Assembly: GCA_950295325.1 (NCBI GenBank)
Contig: OX485805.1
Location: 45,966,758 to 46,030,757 of the forward strand
From: Polytrichum commune
Taxonomy: Eukaryota; Streptophyta; Polytrichopsida; Polytrichales; Polytrichaceae
Reading direction: 5' to 3'
Length of the DNA stretch: 64,000 nt
Below are positions 8,541 to 64,000 of this stretch, piece after piece (the first letter of the stretch is position 1; the number at the start of each line of letters is the position of its first letter). The notes under the pieces are model-generated. The model saw only the letters and a list, made by a program, of their open reading frames with translations. It had not been told where the DNA came from and did not search any database. The position numbers were made by a program, and so were the translations under genes.

Positions 8541-9010
8541 TGGGGAGAACCGGTGGTTAGTTGCAGATGAACCGGTTGAGTTTGAGAATTAACCGGTTGA
8601 AGCTGGAGAAATAACCGGTTGAGTTTGAGAATTAACCGGTTGAAGTTGGAGAAATAACCGGTTGAGTTTGAGAAATAACTGGTTGAAGGTTGACAAATAA
8701 CCGGTTGAAGTTGGAGAAATAACCGATTGAAGGTTGACAAATAACCGGTTGAAGGTTGAGAAACAACCGGTTGAAGTTGGAGAAATAACCGGTTGAAGGT
8801 TGACAAATAACTGGTTGAAGTTGGAGAAATAACCGGTTGAAGGTTGACAAATAACCGGTTGAAGTTCGAGACTTCTGGAGAATTACAGATCATTTTAGAG
8901 GAACCTGGGGAAGAATATACCTCGAATAATGAAGGAAAACCGGAAGATGTCAACATGTAACTGGCTGGATTTAGAATCACTAGGATCTTGACTGACTGGG
9001 CCCAAAAAAT
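8540..9010. repeat. AACCGGTT-bearing dispersed repeat, expanded copy
   Basis: The same framework occurs at 20555-20770 and 43975-44180, and reversed at 54360-54560 and 33120-33990: TTAGTTRCARATGAACCGG, a short AACCGGTTGA run, TTC(A/G)AGACTTC, a TTTAGAGG stretch, then GATGTCAACATGTAAC and a GGATTTRGRA...ACTAGGATC segment. Elsewhere the run has two or three units; here it has fourteen. Confidence 0.75.
8570..8870. repeat. AACCGGTTGA minisatellite, 14 units of 21-22 bp
   Basis: Each unit starts with the palindrome AACCGGTT (a few have AACTGGTT or AACCGATT). Three spacer types follow: GAGTTTGAGAATT, GAAGTTGGAGAAAT and GAAGGTTGACAAAT. The last two alternate in the right half, giving a 44-bp higher-order period. 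The array keeps a long reverse-strand frame open (8420-8980) purely because the unit lacks stops. Confidence 0.95.
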
Positions 9011-20554: not shown

Positions 20555-20770
20555 CCGACTGCTAGTTACAAATGAACCGGTTGAGTTTGAGGAATAACCG
20601 GTTGAAGTTTGAGGAATAACCGGTTGAGGTTCAAGACTTCATTCAGGGAAATAACCCACCGATTTAGAGGTATCAATAAAGAGAACCAAAAGCTCACAAC
20701 ATGTAAAGGTTGGACTTGGAAATAGTAGCATTTGACCGATTATGCTCAAACCCTCCCCGGACATTGACTC
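20555..20770. repeat. AACCGGTT-bearing dispersed repeat, copy with three units
   Basis: CTAGTTACAAATGAACCGG is followed by three AACCGGTTGA units, CAAGACTTC, ACCGATTTAGAGG and a decayed ACATGTAAAGGTTGGAC block. It ends near CTCCCCGGACATTG. Confidence 0.7.
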
Positions 20771-22501: not shown

Positions 22502-24580
22502 GTGTAACCCGCTGCTGACCGGTTTACATGGAAGTTACTCCCACCAAAATTAGATTCTCTTAGTTTCCAAAACTTGTGAAGGTGTCCGTTAACTCTTTGT
22601 TGACTAATTCTTGTAATCTGTAATTTATCGCTTTTGAAATCCTCTTGGAATCGTTGACCTGAGGTTACAAGTTTATGTTCCCCGAAATCTAATATTAAAG
22701 TGCTCTCTAAGAAACTACTTTCCTTAGTTCTTAATCATCTATTCGCTCTTGCATCTTTCATGGTTTGAAAGATCTCGCAAGATAATCTTATTTCTTCAAT
22801 TCCGGAATGTTGTATTTGAAGATCCCTTTTTATAAATCTCCAAGGAGAAAGTGTCTTAGGTTTTCGAGATTATGTTCCCCGAAATCCTAATGTCGAGGTT
22901 AAGTGTTTCAAGGGAAACTCTAAATGTTGCAAACAATATCTTTCATGGTTCGAATGCATCTAATCTTCATTACTTTCTAAGAATATTCCGAGAATGTCTT
23001 CATAAAGAGTTTCTAGTTCAAAACATATTCTTTAACATTATGGAAATCTTGAGAATCATCTTGCCTCTTTAACCTTGATTATATTGTTCTGATGGTATCC
23101 TTGGTCCTTCAACATTCCAAATTCACTTGAGAATATTGGAGGGATTAGAATCCTTGTTGATTCTAATGTATATGGTAAACCGATTTCCACTTAAAGATGT
23201 TTGATTACTATCACCCTCATTTATGAGGTATTAAACTTATGGCCTAAATTTCCCCAAGTGTTCCCCTTAGGCTAATTCCCTTTGAATTGGATTTGGCACC
23301 GCGTAATAATTTAGTATCTAGTCATACCTGGTATGACGTGATGGTAAGCCGGTAAGCCCACAACTTACCTTCCTCAAATATGAGTGACTTGGGCTTTTAC
23401 TGTAATAATTTATCTTACTTGGCCGGCTTGAGGTCGGGGATTAACTCGAGTGTACCGCCGAATGAGATTTCCTCCTCTCTGTAATTATTTCCCTTCGGGT
23501 CCTTCGGCTCGAAATTCTCCTTCGTCAAAGGTCTTAGTTACCGGAGCAAACTTAATCCGAAGCTTTGACTAATTTGCCTTAGTGTAGTAACATGTGCTAA
23601 TATCCTCCGAGTTAGGATTTGAGAACCTCGGCTAAATATTTTAACACTTTAGAATGCCCTCCGAGTTAGGGTATGTATTTGCCTCGGCTAGCTATCTTCG
23701 TGCATGATTGTCTCCAATGCCCTCCGAGTTAGGGCTTAAGTATGCCTCGGCTACTCGCATTAATATTCCAATGCCCTCCGAGTTAGGGCTCGAATGCCTC
23801 GGCTAATCGCATTAGTATTCCAATGCCCTCTGAGTTAGGGCTCGAATGCCTCGGCTAATTGCGATGCTAGCTCGATTGCCCTCCAAGTTAGGGCACGAAA
23901 ACCTCGGCTAAATATACTAGCTTGAGAGAGTGCTAGAGGCTCCGACACTCATGTAGAGTTTGCGTGTTCAAATGAAGTGTATTAGGTGCCTTAAGTTTGG
24001 CTTCTTATATAGTATTCAACATCTATCTTTAATTAGATGTGGCGGTTAGGCCTAACTTCCCCTAATGCCACATGTTCATTTTAGGCTATTTTTATCCATG
24101 TATCCGGTCACAGTCTAATTTTAGGCTGACCGGATCTATTTACAGCAGTTATAATGTCCGAATGTAAAATGTACTTATGAAGTTCATTCGTTGGATTTCT
24201 TGGCTTAACCTAGATGTGCCTCGTGGTTCGGTTATCATCCATGGGCCTCCTTCATCCGGAATGCAACTATTCATTTAAAGGGAATAGTTTATGTTCATCT
24301 AAAAAGGACTTTCATCCTTTTAGGCATGTCTTTCATCTACCCTTGCTTAGGTGTTTACTAGACTACTAACTATCCTATCTCACTAACTTGTCCGTTCTCG
24401 GAACTATGGTGGCGTTCCCGGTGTGCTCCCGGTATGCCTTCTCGTTCCCGGGCGTTCCCTCGATGAAGCTCCTTGTGCCCGATACGTTCCCGCGTTCCCA
24501 GCATTCTCATGGAGGCTCCCGGGTACGTTCCCGCCGGCTCCTTCATTCCCGGGCGTTCCCCTTGTTCCCGGTGCGTTACA
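22502..24580. mobile_element. Possible LTR (TGTAAC...GTTACA), no target duplication found
   Basis: The segment starts TGTAACCCGCTGCTGACC and ends CCGGTGCGTTACA, 6-bp inverted LTR-like ends. It has repeats with a period near 197 (GTTCCCCGAAATC at 22677 and 22874) and many small palindromes. Flanking pentamers do not match and no primer-binding site follows, so the borders are tentative. No protein domain. The array at 23602-23897 is inside. Confidence 0.35.
23602..23897. repeat. Six-unit hairpin array with CCGAGTT loop
   Basis: Hairpins at 23602 (ATCCT/AGGAT), 23654 (ATGCCCT/AGGGTAT), 23719, 23772, 23824 (GCCCT/AGGGC) and about 23877 (TGCCCT/AGGGCA), with loops CCGAGTT, CTGAGTT or CCAAGTT. 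Each is followed 5-17 bases later by CCTCGGCTA, whose CTCGG is complementary to the loop CCGAG. Confidence 0.8.
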
Positions 24581-49693: not shown

Positions 49694-52323
49694 TCAAGGA
49701 ATTGTGTCGAATTTCGGTTCGAAAATGAAACTGGATTTGCACAATGGTGCGTCTCCGGCTCGGTGAGCAATATTGCACCACGTTTTTGTGGACATGTCAT
49801 ACACGAGCATGAGAACCATATCCTTGAGATCGTCACCACATTGACTGAGCTCATCTGTTTCCTCGACAGCCGATTCTCTCCTCACGCCGAGCAACAAAAT
49901 CTTCCTATCGCATGCAAACACATGCCAGCCATAATCTTGTAACTCGTCGAGCCTTGGATGGCGACAAATCTCCTTCAAAACCTCGGAATGGGCCTGGAAT
50001 TCCATCAACTTGCCTGCAACCAAGTCCAGTACAACTAATAGTCGACCATTGTTGGCCCCCTCAGGGAAGAACCCTGGACCTTGTGCAGCTGAAGAGCTAT
50101 GGAAATTGTACAAAGTTTCAGGCAGGTTGCTAGAAATCAGCACTCCTGAATGGAGGTCCCATGTATGGATGAGTCCAGCCATGAAGTCGACCGAAATGTA
50201 GCGACCATCTGCAGTAATGTCCTGAGGCCGGAGACATCTTTCCCACGTATTCGTATTTGGCTGACATCTTTCCCATTTATTTGTATGAGGCAGACGCCGA
50301 ACCCAAGTATTTGATACTGAGTTGTAGACCCAAAAATGTGTGGGCTCCTTAGAATCCAAGTTAAGTGCTGCACAGAACAGACGAAGGCAAGTTAATTAAA
50401 GACATACAGGGTATTAAATAACTAGCACCACCTAGCATGTCAGTTACAGATGTACCAATTGATGTACACTTTAGAATGGTTCTGCATTTCTGCATTTGGA
50501 ACACCACATCAATTATATTGCGAGCAGAGTAAACTTAATCACAGCATCTATCTGTTAGATGCTTAGAACCCCCTTAGGAGTAGTGTTGGAGCATGACTTT
50601 CTCATCACATGGAACTTCGAGCGATTCACCATGAACTAGGTAAATGGATGCGAGGAGCCTGGCCATGGGTCGTAGTAGGCGCATGACATATTGCCCTAGA
50701 GGTGCGGTAGTTTTTTGGGTGCCTACTATAAGTTGGTGTAGGGCAACACGTGTCCATTATCAGACATAGTGGTCCAACATGTTCATTGTTTATGGATGAT
50801 ATTGTGTCTCCTCCTATCCAGTTAAATTTTAAACAAGTCAACAATAATTGTGTGGCTTAACCACTACATCCTAGATGTTGTACTTGAGGAACCTTGCTAC
50901 AGAGAGTAGCAATCTATCTTTGTACGACAACCCATAGCAAGGCAATGTACATGTACAATATGAGACATAGCACTAATCATATCACGAGGACAACATGTCA
51001 TCATCCTTGTGTGCGATGATGAGGCAAGGAAAGTCTTTGAGTTTTGAGACGGTCACGGCTTAAATTGCAGGGAAACATGAGGTAAGGAAAACATGAGGTA
51101 AGGTAGACACACCTTATTCCAACATAGCTAGAATATTGACACCTAAGTTTGAGTGGTATTTCGTTAGGTGTGGATCTAAGATTGGACACCAAAAAAGCAT
51201 CATGTCTTTGAAATTTGAGATTGGACTTCGTGTTCAAAATATGCAAACCCATTCTAGATCCAATAGTCAACATGATCAAGGGGACCTATATGACCACTTA
51301 ATGAGGAGGACGTAGTCTTCACTTTGATCAAAGAAATTTTCATATGATCTCCAAATATCATGAGGCTAGCAAATGGCTACATGCACGATATGGACTTGCT
51401 AATCATCATCTCGCACTAATCGCGTATTCCATTCATATCCTACGAGAAGTGGGTGCAAAGATAAGAATGTACCCAAATAACACACAAAATCTACCTCAGC
51501 ATGGACAAATCACGAAAACTTGGGGAAGTGGAGTGATGGGCCTCTAAAAAGTGCGACAAATTTGTGACGAGACGTAGTACTACGTATGTACATTACAGAA
51601 AATGGAATATTGGCTCAATTCTGCATGCACGATATGGACTTGCTAATCGTTATTTCGCACTAATCATGGATTCCATTCATATCCTACGAGAAGTGGGTGC
51701 AAAGAGAAGAATGTACCCAAATAACACACGAAATCTACCTTAACATGGACAAATCATGAAAAACTTGGGGAAGTGGAGTGATGGGCCTCTACAAAGTGCG
51801 ACAAATTTGTGACGAGATGTAGTAATATGCATGTACCTTCACAGAAAATGGAATATTGGCTCAATTCTGCGTCCACCACCATCAGAAACACGGTGCGGTG
51901 GGGGTTCGCTTCCATTCCAAGTAGAGGGGGAAGGTGGTGCGATGCTTGTGTGAGTGGATTGGAAACAACCAAATGAACACATGGAGTCTCCTCGAACTCC
52001 GGGTGCAAATCAAACTTTGCAAAGCACAGCAAGCCTCCGTCTGCGGCAACTGGTTGGCCATCGTACTGGGAGGGAAGACCATACCACTTCCCCTCCATCC
52101 CATCGTAGGCCCAAACCTTCTTCGGCCTCGTTTCCATCACGACCGCCATATTCCTCGAGTGGGCCTTGGACTCGTTCAAAGCTTGCTGGAAACCCGGTGA
52201 CACGATTTTCGAGTACCAGTGCTTGGAGAGCGTCCGAATCTGCACTATGCAATGTAATGGCAAGCGTGCGAATATCAACTCCATCGCCACTTGTGGCAGT
52301 TTGCTCCAGATCTTGTGGTCCAT
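49694..52323 (-). CDS. F-box/kelch-type protein, gene 2 (two exons)
   Basis: The coding exons are 52323-51837 and 50367-49694, joined by a phase-1 intron (donor GAAG|GTACAT, acceptor TTCTGTGCAG|CA, junction codon GCA), giving 386 residues. It is a clear paralogue of gene 1: the same F-box start (MDHKIWSKLP, then ELIFARLPLHCIVQ and LSKHW), the same VAADGGLLCFAK and SNPLTQ blocks, the same intron position, and the same C-terminal FIFEPKFD motif. The three 10-residue WERC-type repeats are present, with W at 184, 194 and 204. The donor lacks the usual GTAAG. It lies in the younger copy-bearing part of a 244-246 bp tandem duplication that places a second, damaged copy of the exon end inside the intron. 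The role is expected to be substrate selection in an SCF complex; the substrate is unknown. No stop or frameshift is seen. Confidence 0.83.
50368..51836 (-). other. Intron of F-box gene 2
   Basis: This is a 1469-bp phase-1 intron. Its donor-proximal 450 bp is the tandem duplication at 51381-51870. The 51080-51540 part carries a copy of the dispersed repeat described at 20100. The rest (50400-51080) shows no coding potential or repeat I recognise. Confidence 0.7.
51381..51870. repeat. Tandem duplication across the exon 1/intron junction of F-box gene 2
   Basis: The units are 51381-51624 and 51625-51870, nearly identical apart from scattered substitutions and small indels. Each contains dispersed-repeat sequence, the donor region and the last 30 or so bases of exon 1. 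Unit 2 holds the working exon end (TTCTGTGAAG|GTACAT on the minus strand). In unit 1 the same site reads TTCTGTAATGTACAT, so the copied donor has lost its exon-side bases. Confidence 0.9.
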
Positions 52324-52817
52324 AGATGGGGTTGCCTGTGCAAATTGCAATATGAATTGAAGTTACAGCAAACCAGAAAAACTTGTCAGTTAAGGGCAAT
52401 CAATCTGCTGAAGCTGATGTCCTCTATGAATAAGTAATCACATGGCGTCGTCGACAGTACTAACCTGCAAACTAGGTATGGTTAGTGTGTGTGTGTGGAA
52501 GTTGTGTTTTTTTAGGGTTTGTTGTTTGATCTGCTTGCTGGGAGCATCCCCAGTCCAAAGGGATGGAGTTTCGGTTTGCCCAAACTCTAAGCTTTTGCTT
52601 ACTACAAACCTTTGCACCTGGCAATACTGACGAGTTTGAGAGCCCTAAAAGAGGCAAACACACGACAATGTTGGAGTGATACTGATCTGAGAATGAAGTT
52701 AGTTTTCTTTGTCCAATTTCTAGTTTCTCTGCTACTGCAACCTCTTGAACTCCACCATATCATTGCTTCTAATGAGTTTGCTTTACGAAATTTGAAGGCA
52801 TGTTATTTCAAACCTAA

Positions 52818-56514: not shown

Positions 56515-57379
56515 ACGGGGAGGTCACTCCCTCTTTAAATAATGCATACATGCGCGCTCAGTACCTATTTATCGGGGGGCTATTTACCTTGCAATTTTTT
56601 TTATAAGGTATGGTATTTTTCAAAATAAAGGTAAATGCTTGTCTTTTCATAAACCCTATTAGTTATTATAATTTTTTGGTGGAATCATTTAAAAATGCCC
56701 TATTTCATTTATACTTTAATTTTTTCTTATATTCCAAGTAACCAATTTGTTTTTTCTCGGAGCCCAATTGTTGTCCATTTTTTCTTAAACCGCATTTTAT
56801 TTTGTACGCCCCATTTTTTTTGGTTATGTAAGTGACATTTTTTTTCATGAAGGAAATTTCTCTTCTTACAACCATGAATTGTGAAGTTCAGCTACAATGC
56901 TAAACTCACATGAACTAAATCAAAACAATAAACCTAAGGCAAAGGCATGCAACTAAAGCATTGTCTTAGACTATGAAATAAAGTCAAACAAAGCACCGAA
57001 ATTTTCCCTCCCGGCATGTGGGTAGAGACCATTAACTCCACATTCGAACCGTTGGTTCAGTAACGTTCAAGCAAGCCAAACCATCCATCCAAGCATTTTC
57101 AACATAAAATTGCCTTTTTTCATCCACTAGCACATACCCTACCCTAGACCTGCTACCCCTAGTAATTGTTTCCAAGCTATTTTACATATACTGACTAGAT
57201 AAAGGAGGCCATTATATGTGATGTTATTTTACATGTATACAAGTTTCATTATTTTAGAACCCCCTATATTATATGTATGATTTTTTATTTTTTTGCAAAA
57301 TTTACCTACAATGAATATATTAAACTTTTTTTTTTATCACATGTTGTTTTTACAATTTTTGCCAATGACCTCCCTGTGG
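56515..57379. mobile_element. Non-autonomous hAT-like element inside the DUF7869 gene
   Basis: The ends are inverted: CACGGGGAGGTCACT on the left and, read from the other side, CACAGGGAGGTCATT on the right. Both flanks carry GGACGATT, an 8-bp target duplication typical of hAT elements. It is 865 bp and AT-rich with no transposase. It interrupts the C-terminal part of the transposon gene, whose coding trace continues across it. A truncated, inverted second copy lies at 62922-63403. Confidence 0.75.
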
Positions 57380-60348
57380 GACGATTACTAGCAAGCCCAA
57401 CATAATGGTTGTCCTCGTCAAACTCCTCACAAACTCTCCATTCTCCAAAGCCTAGTCTCCGATGCAGGAACATCTACACGACTTTGTGGTCAAAAACCAT
57501 GCCTTAAAATAAGGGGACCATCTTGATGAATGTCCATCAAAGCTGAACAAACATGTGTCCAATAGCCTATGCAAGTTTCATATTGGTGGCAAAATGATCC
57601 ACCAACATTCACTACCCACAAACAAATCCCAATATTGTATGAAGCCCGATATGCCTTTTAAAATGTTCTTCGCATTCTTCATGGATATTGGTTTGTAAGG
57701 TTTGGACTCCCCATCCAGTAACATCATCTTACCCTCCTCATCAACACACCAAACAAGAAGCCCTTGTGGTCGGCTTCAATCTTGCATCGTACACAATAGC
57801 TTGTATTACATGGCCAGAATACCGTTATCACGCACATAAAAACCAAAATTGTTGAGCCTTTGTGTGCCCAATCAGATGATGAACTCCACTCCGAAGATAT
57901 GTTTCTATAAATGTTTTGAAGTCTTGCACCTCCTCAATCATATGTGGGATGATGGGAGCGTTGTTCAAATCCATATACAACTTCATTGTAGGTAGGATTT
58001 TTGGATTGAATTCCGTTCAACAAAACCACAAAGGAAAAACTAAATAGGTGATAGATAGAACTCTAATTATCACTATTAGGTTAATTGATATGTCACAAGG
58101 ATTTAGGAATGAGATCTAAATACAAAACCTAAGTGAAACTTTTTTTAAGTATCTTTTGGAAAAATATGAGATTAAGGAGTGGATTTTGAGGGTCACTCAG
58201 TGCAGTACTTGCAATTGCGCAATCTCTCCCTCATGGCCAACCATAGTCCAGTAGTAACGACTTGCTATACCATGGATTTTTAATGCAAGGAGTCTCAACT
58301 CATCAAATGTCTTTTGGAGTAACCAATAACCACATGTAAATTGGGCCAAGGGCATTCCAATATCAACAATATTTTCTCCTTAATTATATGATAATTTAAT
58401 AGATCATGAAATACTATAGAATGAACCTTGCAGGTTACAACATATATTGATTTTTATTTATTTTAATGAGGCAACAATTGTCCTTACCTGGACCAACTGA
58501 AGGACTTCTACCTGTGAGTTTCCAAAGCCATTAGCCATAACAAGTTAGTTCATATGCTACTACCATAGTTTATTTTATTTTATTTTTCTTTGACTACACT
58601 TTATGTGGGTCTTTGGTTCATTAATTTTGAAATGATTCATATGTTGATCTCTAATATCCCTTTTGTAATAGACATTTAATTGGGATAATTTGTAGAGTCC
58701 ATCCCAGGCGGTAGAGTTCAATTTTTTTATTATATGCCTTTATGCAATTACAAGATTAATTAGATATGATGAAATTACTTGAGAAAAATGTTAAAAAAAA
58801 TGGCCAACTCATTTGGCCATCAACCTTTGATACAAGGTACTTCAGTGGCATGTAGCACATCACCTTATCCTTGTTATGCTACATCACTTTGACTCTTCAA
58901 TAGACCATGTTCAAGATGGATCATGTAACCTTCATGCCTCTTCCATAATGTGTACTCTTTGTATGGCCCTTCTAGGCTCCCTTTTATGCAATGGTTGGTG
59001 GTGGATTCCATTGACTATGGGATAATTTTGATCGCTAGTAGACAACTCCCTCTTTCAAGGATCACGTCATGGTCTCCAGTCCTTGTTTCTTCACCTCCAA
59101 CAAACTATTGTATCAATGTTGGCTAGTGCTTTGTTTCTCACAAATCCCAGAGCTTCATGCCATGATTTTTCTCCACAAAGATTATGGCTTTAACAATTAA
59201 TTTTTTATGGATTCAACTACTTTCTACCCGAGAGTCGATACTTTGAAAAACCCAGTTTGTTTCGAACAACTTGCAGTAGTCGAATTGCTTTGCGCAATAT
59301 TTACTTAAGGACTAAGTTTATGAATTCCAAGGCTTTTCACATGGATTACTCACTTGTAGACTATGGCTGCAATAAATTATGAGTGTGTCAATTTGTTGCA
59401 GTGAATAGCTTCTTATTTATTTATGGTTCATTCCTCAAGACTTCTCACCTTGTGGAATTGACTTAGGCTAGTGCGCCACTAATGCTTTCAATGTAGAACA
59501 CATGTTTTCTTGAGAAGATGGTAACCATTCAAATGAGACACTTGACCATGAATAAATCCAATGTGCAACAAACAATTGGTCACTTCCCAAATCTACGTAT
59601 TAGAAGCTATGGTGATTCTCTCAAAGGCTTCACACCTTGTAATTTTAGTTTAAATTATAGCCATGACAAACTTCTTCACTTAAACACTTCACCCTATTCT
59701 TAAGGTTCAAGCTAATGGCCATGCCAACATTCATGATAAATTGTTAGATTTGATTATTTTTCAAAAGATGTTACTTTATCAACCAAGGGCTTTCCACCTT
59801 GGAATTCTCATAGACTATGGTGATGCTCAAAAATTCTTAATAATCTCAATTTGCTCTCTTCCTGAGAGCTTAGTCAATAGATTTTAACCATCACACAAAG
59901 CCAATACAATCAAATAGTATCTCATAAATAATCATACAACATAAGCCAAGGTTTCACACCTTCTTGTTGCACTCAAACTATGGCCCTTGGCAAAATTCCA
60001 TAATTTTAGGTCAACTTTCACTCCCTTCTTCAAGAATGAAACTTATAGATTACACAATTATGGAGAAAATTGTCACCACTATCTGTTACGAACCTCTCAC
60101 CAGTTGGCAATTTGTTTCTTGACAACAAAATCTCAAAGTAAAGAATTGAAACAAACACCAATTTTATTTCTTCTTCTAAGTACAAACCACAACCAAATAA
60201 AGTTTGGTCAACGAAGCTCTACCACCCGACCATAGGAGAGAGACAAAAAAGATCCCCTCTCCTCCCCCGAGCTTCCTCTTATACCGAAACACTACTTTTA
60301 CTTTCTATATTTACATATAGCAAAAGTATTCTATTCATAGCTCTATCT

Positions 60349-60826
60349 CATAGTTCTACTATGAATCTTCTATCTTTGGTTCTTCTAGAACCTTCTTTCA
60401 TCTCTTATCTCAATTCCATTCTTCCAATTGAAACTGTCTAATTCCAATTGGATTCATCCATTCTTCTTTCTAGTTGGAACTGTCTAATTCCAACTAAATA
60501 CATCCATCCTTCATTCCAGTTGGAACTGTCTAATTCCAACTTGGTTCATCCAACCTTTCTCTTAGTTGGAACTGTCTAATTCCAACTAGCTTTATCTATT
60601 CATTGAGAGTTGTCTAACTCCAATGAATAACTTCCAAATATGGAGTGGTCTAACTCCTGTGCACCTCATCGAGAGTTGTCTAACTCACATGCACATGTTC
60701 TCAATTGGAATGGTCTAGTTCCAATGCACTAAATGCGGAGCTGTCTAACTCCAGTGCACATGTTGTCAATCTGGAGTTGTCTTACTCCTTTCCATTCATC
60801 CTCAACTGAGAGTTGTCTAGCTCTCA
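60349..60826. repeat. Array of covarying hairpins with a near-constant loop
   Basis: Consecutive inverted repeats: CATAG/CTATG (60349), GGTTC/GAACC (60378), CCAATTG-type (60423), TAGTTGGAA/TTCCAACTA (60471, perfect 9 bp), a near-copy (60516), another perfect one (60563), TATTCATTG/CAATGAATA with an inner GAGTT/AACTC stem (60597), GGAGT/ACTCC (60642), GAGTT/AACTC (about 60673), ATTGGAA/TTCCAAT (60704), GGAG/CTCC (60737), GGAGT/ACTCC (60773) and TGAGAG/CTCTCA (60807). The loops are TTCTA in the first two and TGTCTAA or GGTCTA variants in the rest. Stem changes are paired, so the fold is kept while sequence changes. Confidence 0.8.
60383..60395. promoter_or_regulatory. Heat-shock-element-like motif in the solo LTR
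   Basis: TTCTAGAACCTTC matches the alternating TTCnnGAAnnTTC pattern bound by heat shock factors. It sits inside an LTR, as in heat-activated plant retrotransposons, but also overlaps the second hairpin, so it may be incidental. Confidence 0.35.
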
Positions 60827-62715
60827 TCTTTCTCTGCTTACACACTGGCACATGTAGTTAGAATATTCCTTAATAATTCTAGTTACATTACACTATCTCT
60901 AACTCATTACAAGACATTTCAAAACCAAGGGCTTCACACCCAATATTGAACTTCTTACAATTGTCCTATTCAAGCTTCAAGAAATCCCATCTCTTCCCGA
61001 GGGAGATACTAATTTTTGATACAACCACTTGAGTATATAAAACAATTGCTACCTCTCATTATGGCCTACAAGGTTAAATGGGATAGGGGAGTACGGTGCT
61101 TGACCCTCAAGAGTTGTGACTATCCATAACCAAAACTCAAGAGGTTTTGCTAATTTCCCACATGTCTATAGTCTCTTCATTCAAATACCTCCTAATTAAC
61201 CCTTGCCAATGGTTAGAACGTCCAATTTAGCATTATTAACCTTCTTTTGGCTTAATAATCATTAAAAACATTGTCTCTTCACTAATTCAAGAACCAAAAT
61301 GAAGATTTGAGCTCAAAAATCACCAAAGCTCAAAATTTGAGCTAATCTAACTAAAAAGTTGGATCACATTCATCAAGATGGTATTGTTGGGAAATCCTCC
61401 TCATGCGACTTCATGCTTCACCATCCAGAAGATGCATAAATATCATTGTGCATGTGGCCCACCAATAGAAAAGATACAAACACTTCCTTGAAAATGCCAT
61501 TTGCAACTAGTAAAGACCAGTAGGCAAACACAAATTTGTTTGTATTGTCTTTGGCGCAGTCGTCGAGTTGGACCCACATAATGGGGGATAATTTTTGTGC
61601 AACCACATGCTCATTAGGGGGTTTTGGCAATGAATCCAAGGATGATTATTTTCCATCCAACACCGCCTCATATTGAGGTGTCGATCTAGCATTTTCAAAT
61701 AACGACCTTGAGGAGTACGAATGCAGTTTCTTCTAATCACAAAAAAACTGTGCAAATGAGCCAATGGTGTGGTTTGAATCTACTAGATACAAATCAAGGG
61801 CATATTGGGCAAAGTTGACATCACCATGGCCATGCGCAATTGTCCCTACAAGAACAACCCAAAGGCTTGTTGTTGAGTAAACAATCCAAATATATTACGC
61901 TTATGCTACTAATTACCATAACGAACAAATAGAGTTGTGAGACCCCATAAAACAAAGATTCACAAGCTATGAGACATTGGAGAGAAAAATATTACATGTA
62001 ACCGAAACATGTAGCTTAAAGAGTCCATTTGTAGCCTAGATTCAATGCGTAAAACATGATGAGGTTATTTTGGCATGGTCCATTTTATCATAGATGACCG
62101 TGAGGATTTCCAATGGCCTAGTGATGGACAACGCTTTATTGGTGTAATAATCATTATGATGGGCCTCTCGCATGTTCACGTGCTTAGATTTATTCAATTG
62201 ATGTGCAGCGTAAGACTCGGTCCCAATCGTAATGTATCCAAAGGCGCTTCAATATCTCACATTTGGGACACCGAGCAAACTTGTCACCATGTCTTTTTAT
62301 AATGTAATCGCTAAAGTTTATTTTCTTACTCGCACTCAATTTGGACAACAAAATGAACACAATTAACCTTCTCACCAACCGTATTTACATCCAACAAGAG
62401 GTCTTTCCATTTCGTTCGAATGGGAAGAACCTTTTCAACAACCTTCACCCCTATCTGGAGTCTATGTGTTTTGTGCAGCATTACGTTAGCAAAATACACA
62501 ATGATGGTGGCTAGAGATGCTTGTTGTGTTACTTCTTTAGGTTTCTAGAATCTTAAATTTCCATGATTACAAGATCAACGGCCTTTTTTTGGCATAAGCT
62601 GCTTGTCAATTAAATTTTGCTTTAGACACATCATGAATGATATACCATGCCGTACAACACAAATCTATGCTTTCAAGCATGTTCATCTTGCATCCCATCT
62701 AATTCACATCTCGGT

Positions 62716-62921: not shown

Positions 62922-63403
62922 GGGGGGGGGGGTCACTAATAAAAATCGTAGAAACAACATGCGATAAAAATAAGGTCTAATATATTCATTGTAGATAAAT
63001 TTTGCAAACAACATACATATAATATAGGAGGTTCTAGAATAGTGAAAGATATTCACATGTAAAAATATCATCACATGTAATGGCCTCTTTTATGTAGTTA
63101 GTATATGTAAAATAACGTGGAAATAATTATTAGGGATAGCGGGTCTAGGGTAGGGTTTGTGCTAGTGGATGAAAAGAGATAATTTTTTGTTGAAAAAACT
63201 TGGATGGATGACTTTGCAAGCTGGCTGACTTGAATGTTATTGAACCAACGTATCCAATGTGGAGTTAATATTCTCTACCTACGTGCCAGGAGGGAGAATT
63301 TTAGCGCATTATTTGAATTGCAATCTTCTTTCCAATTTTCTTTGGTAGTATAAGTAAAATAGGGTATTTTTAAATGATTCCCCAAAAAATTGATAATAAT
63401 TGA
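62922..63403. mobile_element. Truncated inverted copy of the 56515 hAT-like element
   Basis: This is the reverse complement of about 56680-57375, sharing for example AAACAACATG, TAATATATTCATTGTAG, ACATACATATAATATA, GGGTCTAGGGTAGGG and AAATGATTCC. The inner terminus has become a G tract followed by GTCACT. The other end, about 150 bp, is missing. With 56515-57379 it forms a 6-kb-spaced inverted pair. Confidence 0.7.
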
Positions 63404-64000
63404 TAAGGTGTTTTAAAATACACCAATCTTTCATGGCCACTTCTCTATGGACTCATCTATGAGTAGTTTTTGGTGTTTACACTCATTTGCAGAGTGGGAA
63501 AACATGTAATGAATCATACTTTTGTAGGCCTTTGCATAGTCGCATGTTGGCTTGGAGTTCCTCTTGGAGCTGCAAATAACAACACTCATGATCATGCAAG
63601 CCAACGCCTTCAAACATAACATTTTGGAGCGGCCACCTACAGAGTGAAAAACATTGAGTGGGATGCACTTCGGAATGAACAAACAACTCAATGATGACAA
63701 CCCCAACATCCTTATTGCCAAGTGGATATTGGTCAACACAATCATGCAGGTGGGTATTATGACAAACACCCTCCGCAACATGAACTCCACTCTCGTTAAG
63801 GAGGACCACCTCCAAGTTCACCCATTTCAATTTGGAAAGCCCGGAACACTCAACAATAGGCTCCGTATGTACAGATGGCAAAAGAGTCGCCAAATGCATC
63901 TCTTCTTCAGCATCATCAATCTCTCCCTCTCCAACGATGTCAAATTCATCCTTAGAATAAGAGGCCATGTCCATCATGTCCCTTGAGGACCGAGCCACAT

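What the first reader, a model, noticed from the sequence alone, without database searches (positions are those of the whole stretch)
60349..60826. Thirteen consecutive hairpins with paired stem changes and a near-fixed TGTCTAA loop inside an LTR
The stems differ (GTTGGAA/TTCCAAC, GGAGT/ACTCC, GAGTT/AACTC, ATTGGAA/TTCCAAT, TGAGAG/CTCTCA, TATTCATTG/CAATGAATA), yet each remains paired and the loop keeps TGTCTAA or a one- or two-base variant (TTCTA in the first two). Compensatory change with a fixed loop is the mark of selection on a folded nucleic acid, or of a copying process that rebuilds palindromes. If the LTR transcript spans it, it would form a bead-like structured leader that could serve in packaging, dimerisation or translation control. 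I know of no described LTR feature like this.
Basis: partly seen in the sequence, partly recalled or inferred. Interest (0 to 1): 0.8.

Follow-up and report, generated by a model that had tools for sequence, protein, structure and literature searches.

The report
Conserved palindrome array in a retrotransposon
A common family of jumping genes in this probably plant genome carries a row of short, hairpin-capable DNA motifs in its control region, and evolution has held their core steady in active copies, so they probably act as repeated docking sites for an unknown factor.

Summary
The array is real: 11 perfect hairpins against 2.45 in shuffles, inside a solo LTR (60084-60892, minus strand) of a Ty3/gypsy chromovirus. 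It is not unique: two related LTR families carry it (93 loci aligned). Eleven units have an AGAC centre and fit GGARYTAGACARYTCC on the sense strand with 0-2 differences.

The core is under purifying selection. On terminal branches (mostly after insertion) it changes as fast as the rest of the LTR; on internal branches (lineages that went on transposing) about half as fast (internal/terminal ratio 0.25 against 0.60).

Paired stem changes exceed the null (21 against 8.7 at positions 3-6), but many are deep-branch changes, unit exchanges or misalignments. The RNA strand is not singled out: at positions 3-8 G.U is not favoured over A.C (35 against 47), and the antisense strand folds as unusually.

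Best reading: a directional, dyad-symmetric factor-binding array in LTR control DNA, working like the palindromic repeated motifs of Sirevirus LTRs (PMC2829016), in another superfamily with another motif. New variant of a known kind.

The parts
60084..60892 (-). Solo LTR of a Ty3/gypsy chromovirus family (809 bp, TGTAATG...CGTAACA)
   Evidence: no PBS or PPT beside it, whereas full copies show them
60893..60897 (-). Target-site duplication GATAG, upstream side on the sense strand
   Evidence: row L001
60079..60083 (-). Target-site duplication GATAG, downstream side on the sense strand
   Evidence: row L001
60807..60826 (-). Unit 1 (TGAGAG/CTCTCA)
60773..60788 (-). Unit 2 (GGAGT/ACTCC)
60737..60752 (-). 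Unit 3 (GGAG/CTCC; a G.U pair extends it on the sense strand)
60704..60725 (-). Unit 4 (ATTGGAA/TTCCAAT)
60673..60686 (-). Unit 5 (GAGTT/AACTC)
60642..60657 (-). Unit 6 (GGAGT/ACTCC)
60597..60629 (-). Unit 7 (TATTCATTG..GAGTT/AACTC..CAATGAATA); replaced by a different unit in part of the copies
60563..60588 (-). Unit 8 (TAGTTGGAA/TTCCAACTA)
60518..60541 (-). Unit 9 (AGTTGGAA/TTCCAACT)
60471..60496 (-). Unit 10 (TAGTTGGAA/TTCCAACTA)
60424..60451 (-). Unit 11 (CCAATTG..CAATTGG, one mismatch in this copy)
60378..60392 (-). Hairpin without the AGAC core (GGTTCT/AGAACC)
60348..60364 (-). Hairpin without the AGAC core (TCATAGT/ACTATGA)
60279..60283 (-). TATAA, possible core promoter; reads CATAA in 12 of 12 other copies printed, so inferred only
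60163..60168 (-). AATAAA, possible poly(A) signal (LTR position 725)
   Evidence: role inferred

Best explanation
The units are repeated binding sites in the LTR's cis-regulatory (U3) DNA. An unknown host or element-borne factor reads a roughly 16-bp, nearly dyad-symmetric, directional site (about GGARYTAGACARYTCC on the sense strand), and many copies side by side raise or set expression of the element. Shown: the conserved core, its constraint in active lineages, its near-uniform orientation, its position in the 5' part of the LTR. Inferred: that this part is U3, that a protein binds the DNA, and that the effect is on transcription. The palindromy is kept partly by recognition of both half-sites and possibly by arm-to-arm copying; outer stems are at most weakly constrained.
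For: Core (stem 3-6 plus loop) internal/terminal change ratio 0.248 (155/625) against 0.604 (834/1380) for 24 identically treated pseudo-anchors in the 93-locus set, Fisher p 9e-21 with changes taken as independent; 0.212 against 0.560 in the smaller, overlapping 52-locus set. Stem positions 3-6 also lie below 14-20 anchors matched for conservation. Core letters, not only pairing, are kept: mean identity 0.93 at L-4 and 0.92 at R+4 against 0.73 in other columns. Units in one orientation in 492 of 493 counted. GGAGTTNNNNAACTCC occurs at 437 places against 100 for the reversed control, and 41 of the 50 places listed have AGAC loops. RNA strand not singled out. Published parallel: Sirevirus LTR palindromic repeated motifs upstream of the TATA box (PMC2829016, abstract part, table and Figure 4 legend).
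Against: The centre AGAC is not palindromic yet is as constrained as the arms. Left and right arms change together more than the null at positions 3-6 and at 7-10 (14 against 8.25, 8 of 300 simulations), which a simple two-half-site model does not predict. Position 2 favours G.U over A.C (26 to 6 internal). No expression, binding or chromatin data. The promoter position is inferred: TATAA in the window reads CATAA in 12 of 12 other copies printed, and a pattern tally over 93 loci was uninformative.
Confidence: 0.55

Rival explanations
1. The array works as RNA: AGAC-loop hairpins near the 3' end of the genomic RNA (U3) are bound by Gag or a host protein for packaging, export or stability.
For: Paired changes exceed the null; loop and stem constrained, units directional; absolute folding energy is lower on the sense strand in 17 of 19 arrays; in the 52-locus set internal one-sided changes at positions 3-8 were 25 G.U to 12 A.C against 83 to 82 on terminal branches; position 2 favours G.U also in the 93-locus set (26 to 6).
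Against: The G.U excess at positions 3-8 vanished in the 93-locus set (35 to 47; 61 to 53 with position 2), and genome counts at position 3 are 20 to 28; relative to shuffles the sense strand is the more structured in only 6 of 19. Few double changes are clean within-family cases.
Confidence: 0.2
2. The paired changes are made by a copying process (quasi-palindrome correction by template switching during replication or reverse transcription), on top of selection on the core sequence.
For: No strand bias among mismatches at positions 3-8, as a process blind to RNA pairing predicts; double changes also exceed the null on terminal branches (16 against 8.3 at positions 3-6); outer stems covary although not clearly constrained.
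Against: Internal doubles are more enriched (5 against 0.7) than terminal ones, though 4 of those 5 are deep-branch changes or a unit exchange; copying alone does not explain the slow internal rate of the loop. Several terminal doubles in the listing are misalignments.
Confidence: 0.15
3. The array is a chromatin or silencing interface: a target of an anti-silencing protein, or a small-RNA source as reported for maize Sirevirus palindromes.
For: Same general design as VANC21 target arrays: short motifs, same orientation, tandem gain and loss (PMC5735166, passages); small-RNA hotspots over Sirevirus palindromes (PMC5311732 and PMC10760457, passages).
Against: The three element frames scanned show gag, protease and integrase-chromodomain matches; the rest of the interior was not examined. 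No small-RNA or methylation data.
Confidence: 0.1

Closest known systems
Repeated motif (RM) arrays of Sirevirus (Ty1/copia) LTRs, Bousios et al. 2010, PMC2829016 (passages read); palindromes in maize Sirevirus LTRs, Bousios et al. 2016 (not held; known here only through citing papers)
   Same: Multi-copy short palindromes in the LTR (3-14 per 3' LTR in the table seen), described as a short distance upstream of a promoter region, dyad-symmetric with or without a short intervening stretch
   Different: Ty3/gypsy chromovirus, not Sirevirus; GGA..TCC arms with AGAC centre instead of the CGG-CCG core (which Tnd-1 also lacks in that table); CpG-poor here (7 CpG in 809 bp); constraint on the core measured here
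VANC21 target arrays in VANDAL21 DNA transposons (PMC5735166, passages read)
   Same: Short motif repeated in the same orientation in non-coding parts of an element, tandem gain and loss
   Different: YAGTATTAY is not an inverted repeat with a loop like this; binding by an element-encoded protein is shown there, whereas no such protein was sought exhaustively here
Tandem enhancer boxes in plant LTR U3 regions such as Tnt1 (recalled; only a general statement on tandem cis boxes was seen, in PMC2829016)
   Same: Repeated cis boxes in the LTR
   Different: Two or three boxes in the statement seen; no systematic hairpin form (recalled)

Membership tests
Ty3/gypsy chromovirus | gag and protease at the 5' end, integrase followed by a chromodomain next to the 3' LTR | tested here: met
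   Retrotrans_gag, Ty3_capsid, RVP_2 downstream of one LTR (L014); SH3_Tf2-1, Integrase_H2C2 and Chromo (31.2 bits, cutoff 25.1) upstream of another (L019). Reverse transcriptase not examined.
Ty3/gypsy chromovirus | LTRs with TG..CA ends, 5-bp target duplication, PBS and PPT | tested here: met
   GATAG duplication at the window copy; TGGTATCAGAGC PBS and ATGGAAGGGGGAGAT PPT at full copies; L009-L030 (22 of 30) end CGTAATA, not CA
Sirevirus LTR repeated motif array | Palindromic motif with dyad symmetry in high copy in the LTR | tested here: met
   0-11 units per locus in 93 loci, some truncated
Sirevirus LTR repeated motif array | CGG-CCG core signature | tested here: not met
   arms are GGA..TCC around AGAC
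Sirevirus LTR repeated motif array | Carrier is a Sirevirus (Ty1/copia) | tested here: not met
[quoted passage not shown]
   last AGAC unit at LTR 454, TATAA at 610 in the window copy, but CATAA in 12 of 12 other copies printed
Structured RNA selected in the transcript strand | Compensatory pair changes beyond phylogenetic expectation | tested here: inconclusive
   21 against 8.7 (1 of 300 simulations) at positions 3-6, but slide +2 is also high (10 against 5.1, 6 of 300), 3 of 5 internal cases are on branches of 45-46 leaves where unit homology is doubtful, and 1 is a unit exchange
Structured RNA selected in the transcript strand | G.U tolerated better than A.C | tested here: not met
   35 against 47 internal at positions 3-8 (position 2: 26 against 6); 20 against 28; (smaller set) 25 against 12

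The most novel reading that the evidence does not exclude
Base pairing itself is selected: the array is a multivalent structured signal (RNA hairpins with an AGAC loop near the 3' end of the genomic RNA, or DNA cruciforms in the LTR) read by an element or host protein, a kind of LTR signal that my searches did not find described for a chromovirus.
Probability: 0.22. Interest if true: 0.75.

Novelty: new variant of a known kind. Interest (0 to 1): 0.45.

Why it matters
It shows a palindrome array, described for Copia-type Sireviruses, in a Ty3/gypsy element with a different sequence, and it shows by rate comparison that the motif is selected while the element is active. That makes the question of why plant LTRs gather palindromes testable: the same unit can be scored as a DNA site, an RNA hairpin or a silencing target.

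Tried and rejected
Chance or simple tandem repeat: rejected. Unique to one copy: rejected (41 matches from 40 scored of 707 candidates). Copia assignment: my first notebook note says Copia-type because of the PBS; rejected after domain searches. Sense-strand G.U preference at positions 3-8: seen in 52 loci, not in 93 loci; dropped. Constraint following pairing in outer stems: looked significant (p 5e-4), but that test was circular; cross-validated it is not (0.43 against 0.54, p 0.11). Heat-shock-element spacing was considered and rejected on spacing (recalled rule, no call). ARF/TGTC likeness is a recalled lead only; no motif library was on hand. Host species not identified: one literature search with a guessed moss name gave nothing useful. 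A TATA tally by pattern was uninformative: 63 of 93 loci had no pattern match. L075 was taken in the wrong orientation in early passes; its inverted unit was missed by the count because only 350 bases of that locus entered the set.

Rows dropped: 22 of the 30 loci as near-duplicates and 11 of the remaining 104 loci for short matches, leaving 93. One of 20 loci chosen for folding was not scored. Alignment columns 87 and 203 were left out of the main 12 sites; their internal/terminal stem counts are 21/51 and 8/16.

Full report
What is there. The window lies in a 408-Mb genome; that it is a plant is inferred, not shown. The reported stretch is part of an 809-bp LTR on the minus strand, 60084-60892, with TGT..ACA ends and the 5-bp duplication GATAG on both sides; it lacks the PBS and PPT seen beside full copies, so it is a solo LTR. 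The search listed 41 matches from 40 scored candidates of 707; 30 of 30 fetched LTRs, the window's own included, align over 807-809 of 809 bases. LTR pairs start about 5.3 kb apart (coordinates). Gag, Ty3 capsid and protease matches lie near a 5' LTR and integrase with a chromodomain near a 3' LTR: a Ty3/gypsy chromovirus.

The array. On the sense strand 11 AGAC cores stand at LTR positions 75 to 454, spaced 30-46 bp. Against GGARYTAGACARYTCC, 4 of 11 fit exactly, 5 differ at one base and 2 at two. Two further hairpins lack the core. The number of perfect hairpins (11) exceeds all of 1000 shuffles (maximum 8) and all of 260 tiles outside the LTR (maximum 8).

Spread. GGAGTTAGACAACTCC with up to one mismatch occurs 1458 times genome-wide against 11 for its reversed control. 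With any loop the stem occurs at 437 places against 100; 41 of the 50 places listed have AGAC. Of 126 loci held, 104 remained after dropping 22 near-duplicates, and 93 of these aligned well to one of two LTR queries, 50 best to A (the window's) and 43 to B. The B query itself is 70% identical to the window LTR over 586 aligned positions; of the loci, nearly all matches to A or B fall between about 62 and 86%. Units stand in one orientation in 492 of 493 cases counted; the exception resembles the R region rather than the array, and one real inverted unit in L075, seen, escaped that count.

Selection. Twelve orthologous sites were scored on a tree made from other LTR columns. Changes on terminal branches per cell are alike in loop (0.062), inner stem 3-6 (0.059) and linkers (0.055); on internal branches loop (0.016) and inner stem (0.014) change about half as often as linkers (0.026) or R-U5 (0.034). 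Pseudo-anchors treated the same way give a ratio of 0.604 against 0.248, and anchors matched for conservation give 0.60-0.64 against 0.24 for stem positions 3-6. The p-values treat changes as independent and use parsimony. I read this as purifying selection while elements are active and decay afterwards. Loci were picked for one intact 16-mer, which should lower terminal changes in the core and so work against the result. Stem positions 1-2 (0.425, p 0.025) and flanks 10-12 (0.467, p 0.035) are slightly low; stem 7-9 is not distinguishable from the reference (0.51, p 0.22).

Pairing. Double changes from one Watson-Crick pair to another, with the two root branches left out, number 21 against a null of 8.7 at positions 3-6 (1 of 300 simulations reach it) and 14 against 8.25 at positions 7-10 (8 of 300). 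Internal branches alone give 5 against 0.7 (0 of 300). Three of four slide controls at positions 3-6 are near the null; slide +2 is high (10 against 5.1, 6 of 300). Reading the listing: of the 5 internal cases at positions 3-6, 3 sit on branches of 45-46 leaves, near the split of the two families where unit homology is doubtful, 1 (site 728) is a unit exchange, and 1 (site 148, 11 leaves) is a clean within-family case; of the 4 internal cases at 7-10, 2 are deep and 2 (site 1431) within family; several terminal cases are misaligned units. At position 3 genome-wide the A-T form occurs 286 times, the one-sided G.U form 20 times and the A.C form 28 times; the G-C form is estimated at about 360. 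Two old unit classes may explain much of this. So covariation is suggestive, not strong.

Which molecule. RNA selection predicts G.U above A.C on internal branches. At positions 3-8 the 52-locus set gave 25 to 12; the 93-locus set, which overlaps it, gave 35 to 47. Position 2, beside the loop, favours G.U in both sets (14 to 2; 26 to 6), and with it the total is 61 to 53. Folding of 19 arrays gives mean z of -5.7 sense and -6.9 antisense, the sense strand being the lower in 6 of 19, although its absolute energy is lower in 17 of 19. The evidence does not choose the transcript strand. Constraint on the arm letters at positions 4-6 and on the loop fits a sequence-read site; joint arm changes leave structure or arm copying open.

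Known relatives. Bousios et al. 2010 (PMC2829016; abstract part, table and passages read) describe in Sirevirus LTRs a high-copy palindromic repeated motif, mostly with a CGG-CCG core, upstream of the TATA box. Later work ties such palindromes to small-RNA hotspots (PMC5311732, PMC10760457; passages read; the 2016 source paper is not held). [quoted passage not shown] PMC3601003 was read in passages only and showed nothing like this array. Seven literature searches showed in the titles and abstract starts listed no report of this motif or of such an array in a chromovirus; they cover an open-licence library only.

Verdict. Real, widespread in this genome, with a selected core; works like a Sirevirus-type cis array but is not a member of that set; mechanism not proven.

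Noticed in passing
window 23650-23920: A second array of imperfect palindromes (GCCCTCCGAGTTAGGGC alternating with GCCTCGGC) with TATATA about 90 bp downstream (24006-24011); 43 matches listed genome-wide (40 of 156 candidates scored), four pairs of them 17.4-17.9 kb apart, so perhaps the LTR of a very large element with its own palindrome array.
   Followed up: partly
window 8570-8871 and 20575-20631: Nearly the same 22-bp unit, AACCGGTTGAAGTTTGAGAAAT, containing the palindrome AACCGGTT, in 13.9 and 2.6 copies 12 kb apart.
   Followed up: no
window 56640-57230 and 63062-63422: Inverted repeat arms of 76-161 bp, 81-86% complementary, about 6 kb apart, enclosing the solo LTR.
   Followed up: no
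L075 (about 775-800): One unit with intact stem but the loop inverted relative to its array, perhaps a loop inversion.
   Followed up: partly
LTR positions about 255-310 (window about 60585-60640): A unit with a long stem (TATTCATTG/CAATGAATA) in the window copy is replaced in other copies (for example L004, L006-L010) by a GTTGGAATT-type unit with changed flanks: unit exchange within the array.
   Followed up: partly
window 49694-52362, minus strand: Open frames of a possible F-box gene (PF00646 in 51754-52362), and direct repeats 244-245 bp apart at 51377-51839.
   Followed up: no
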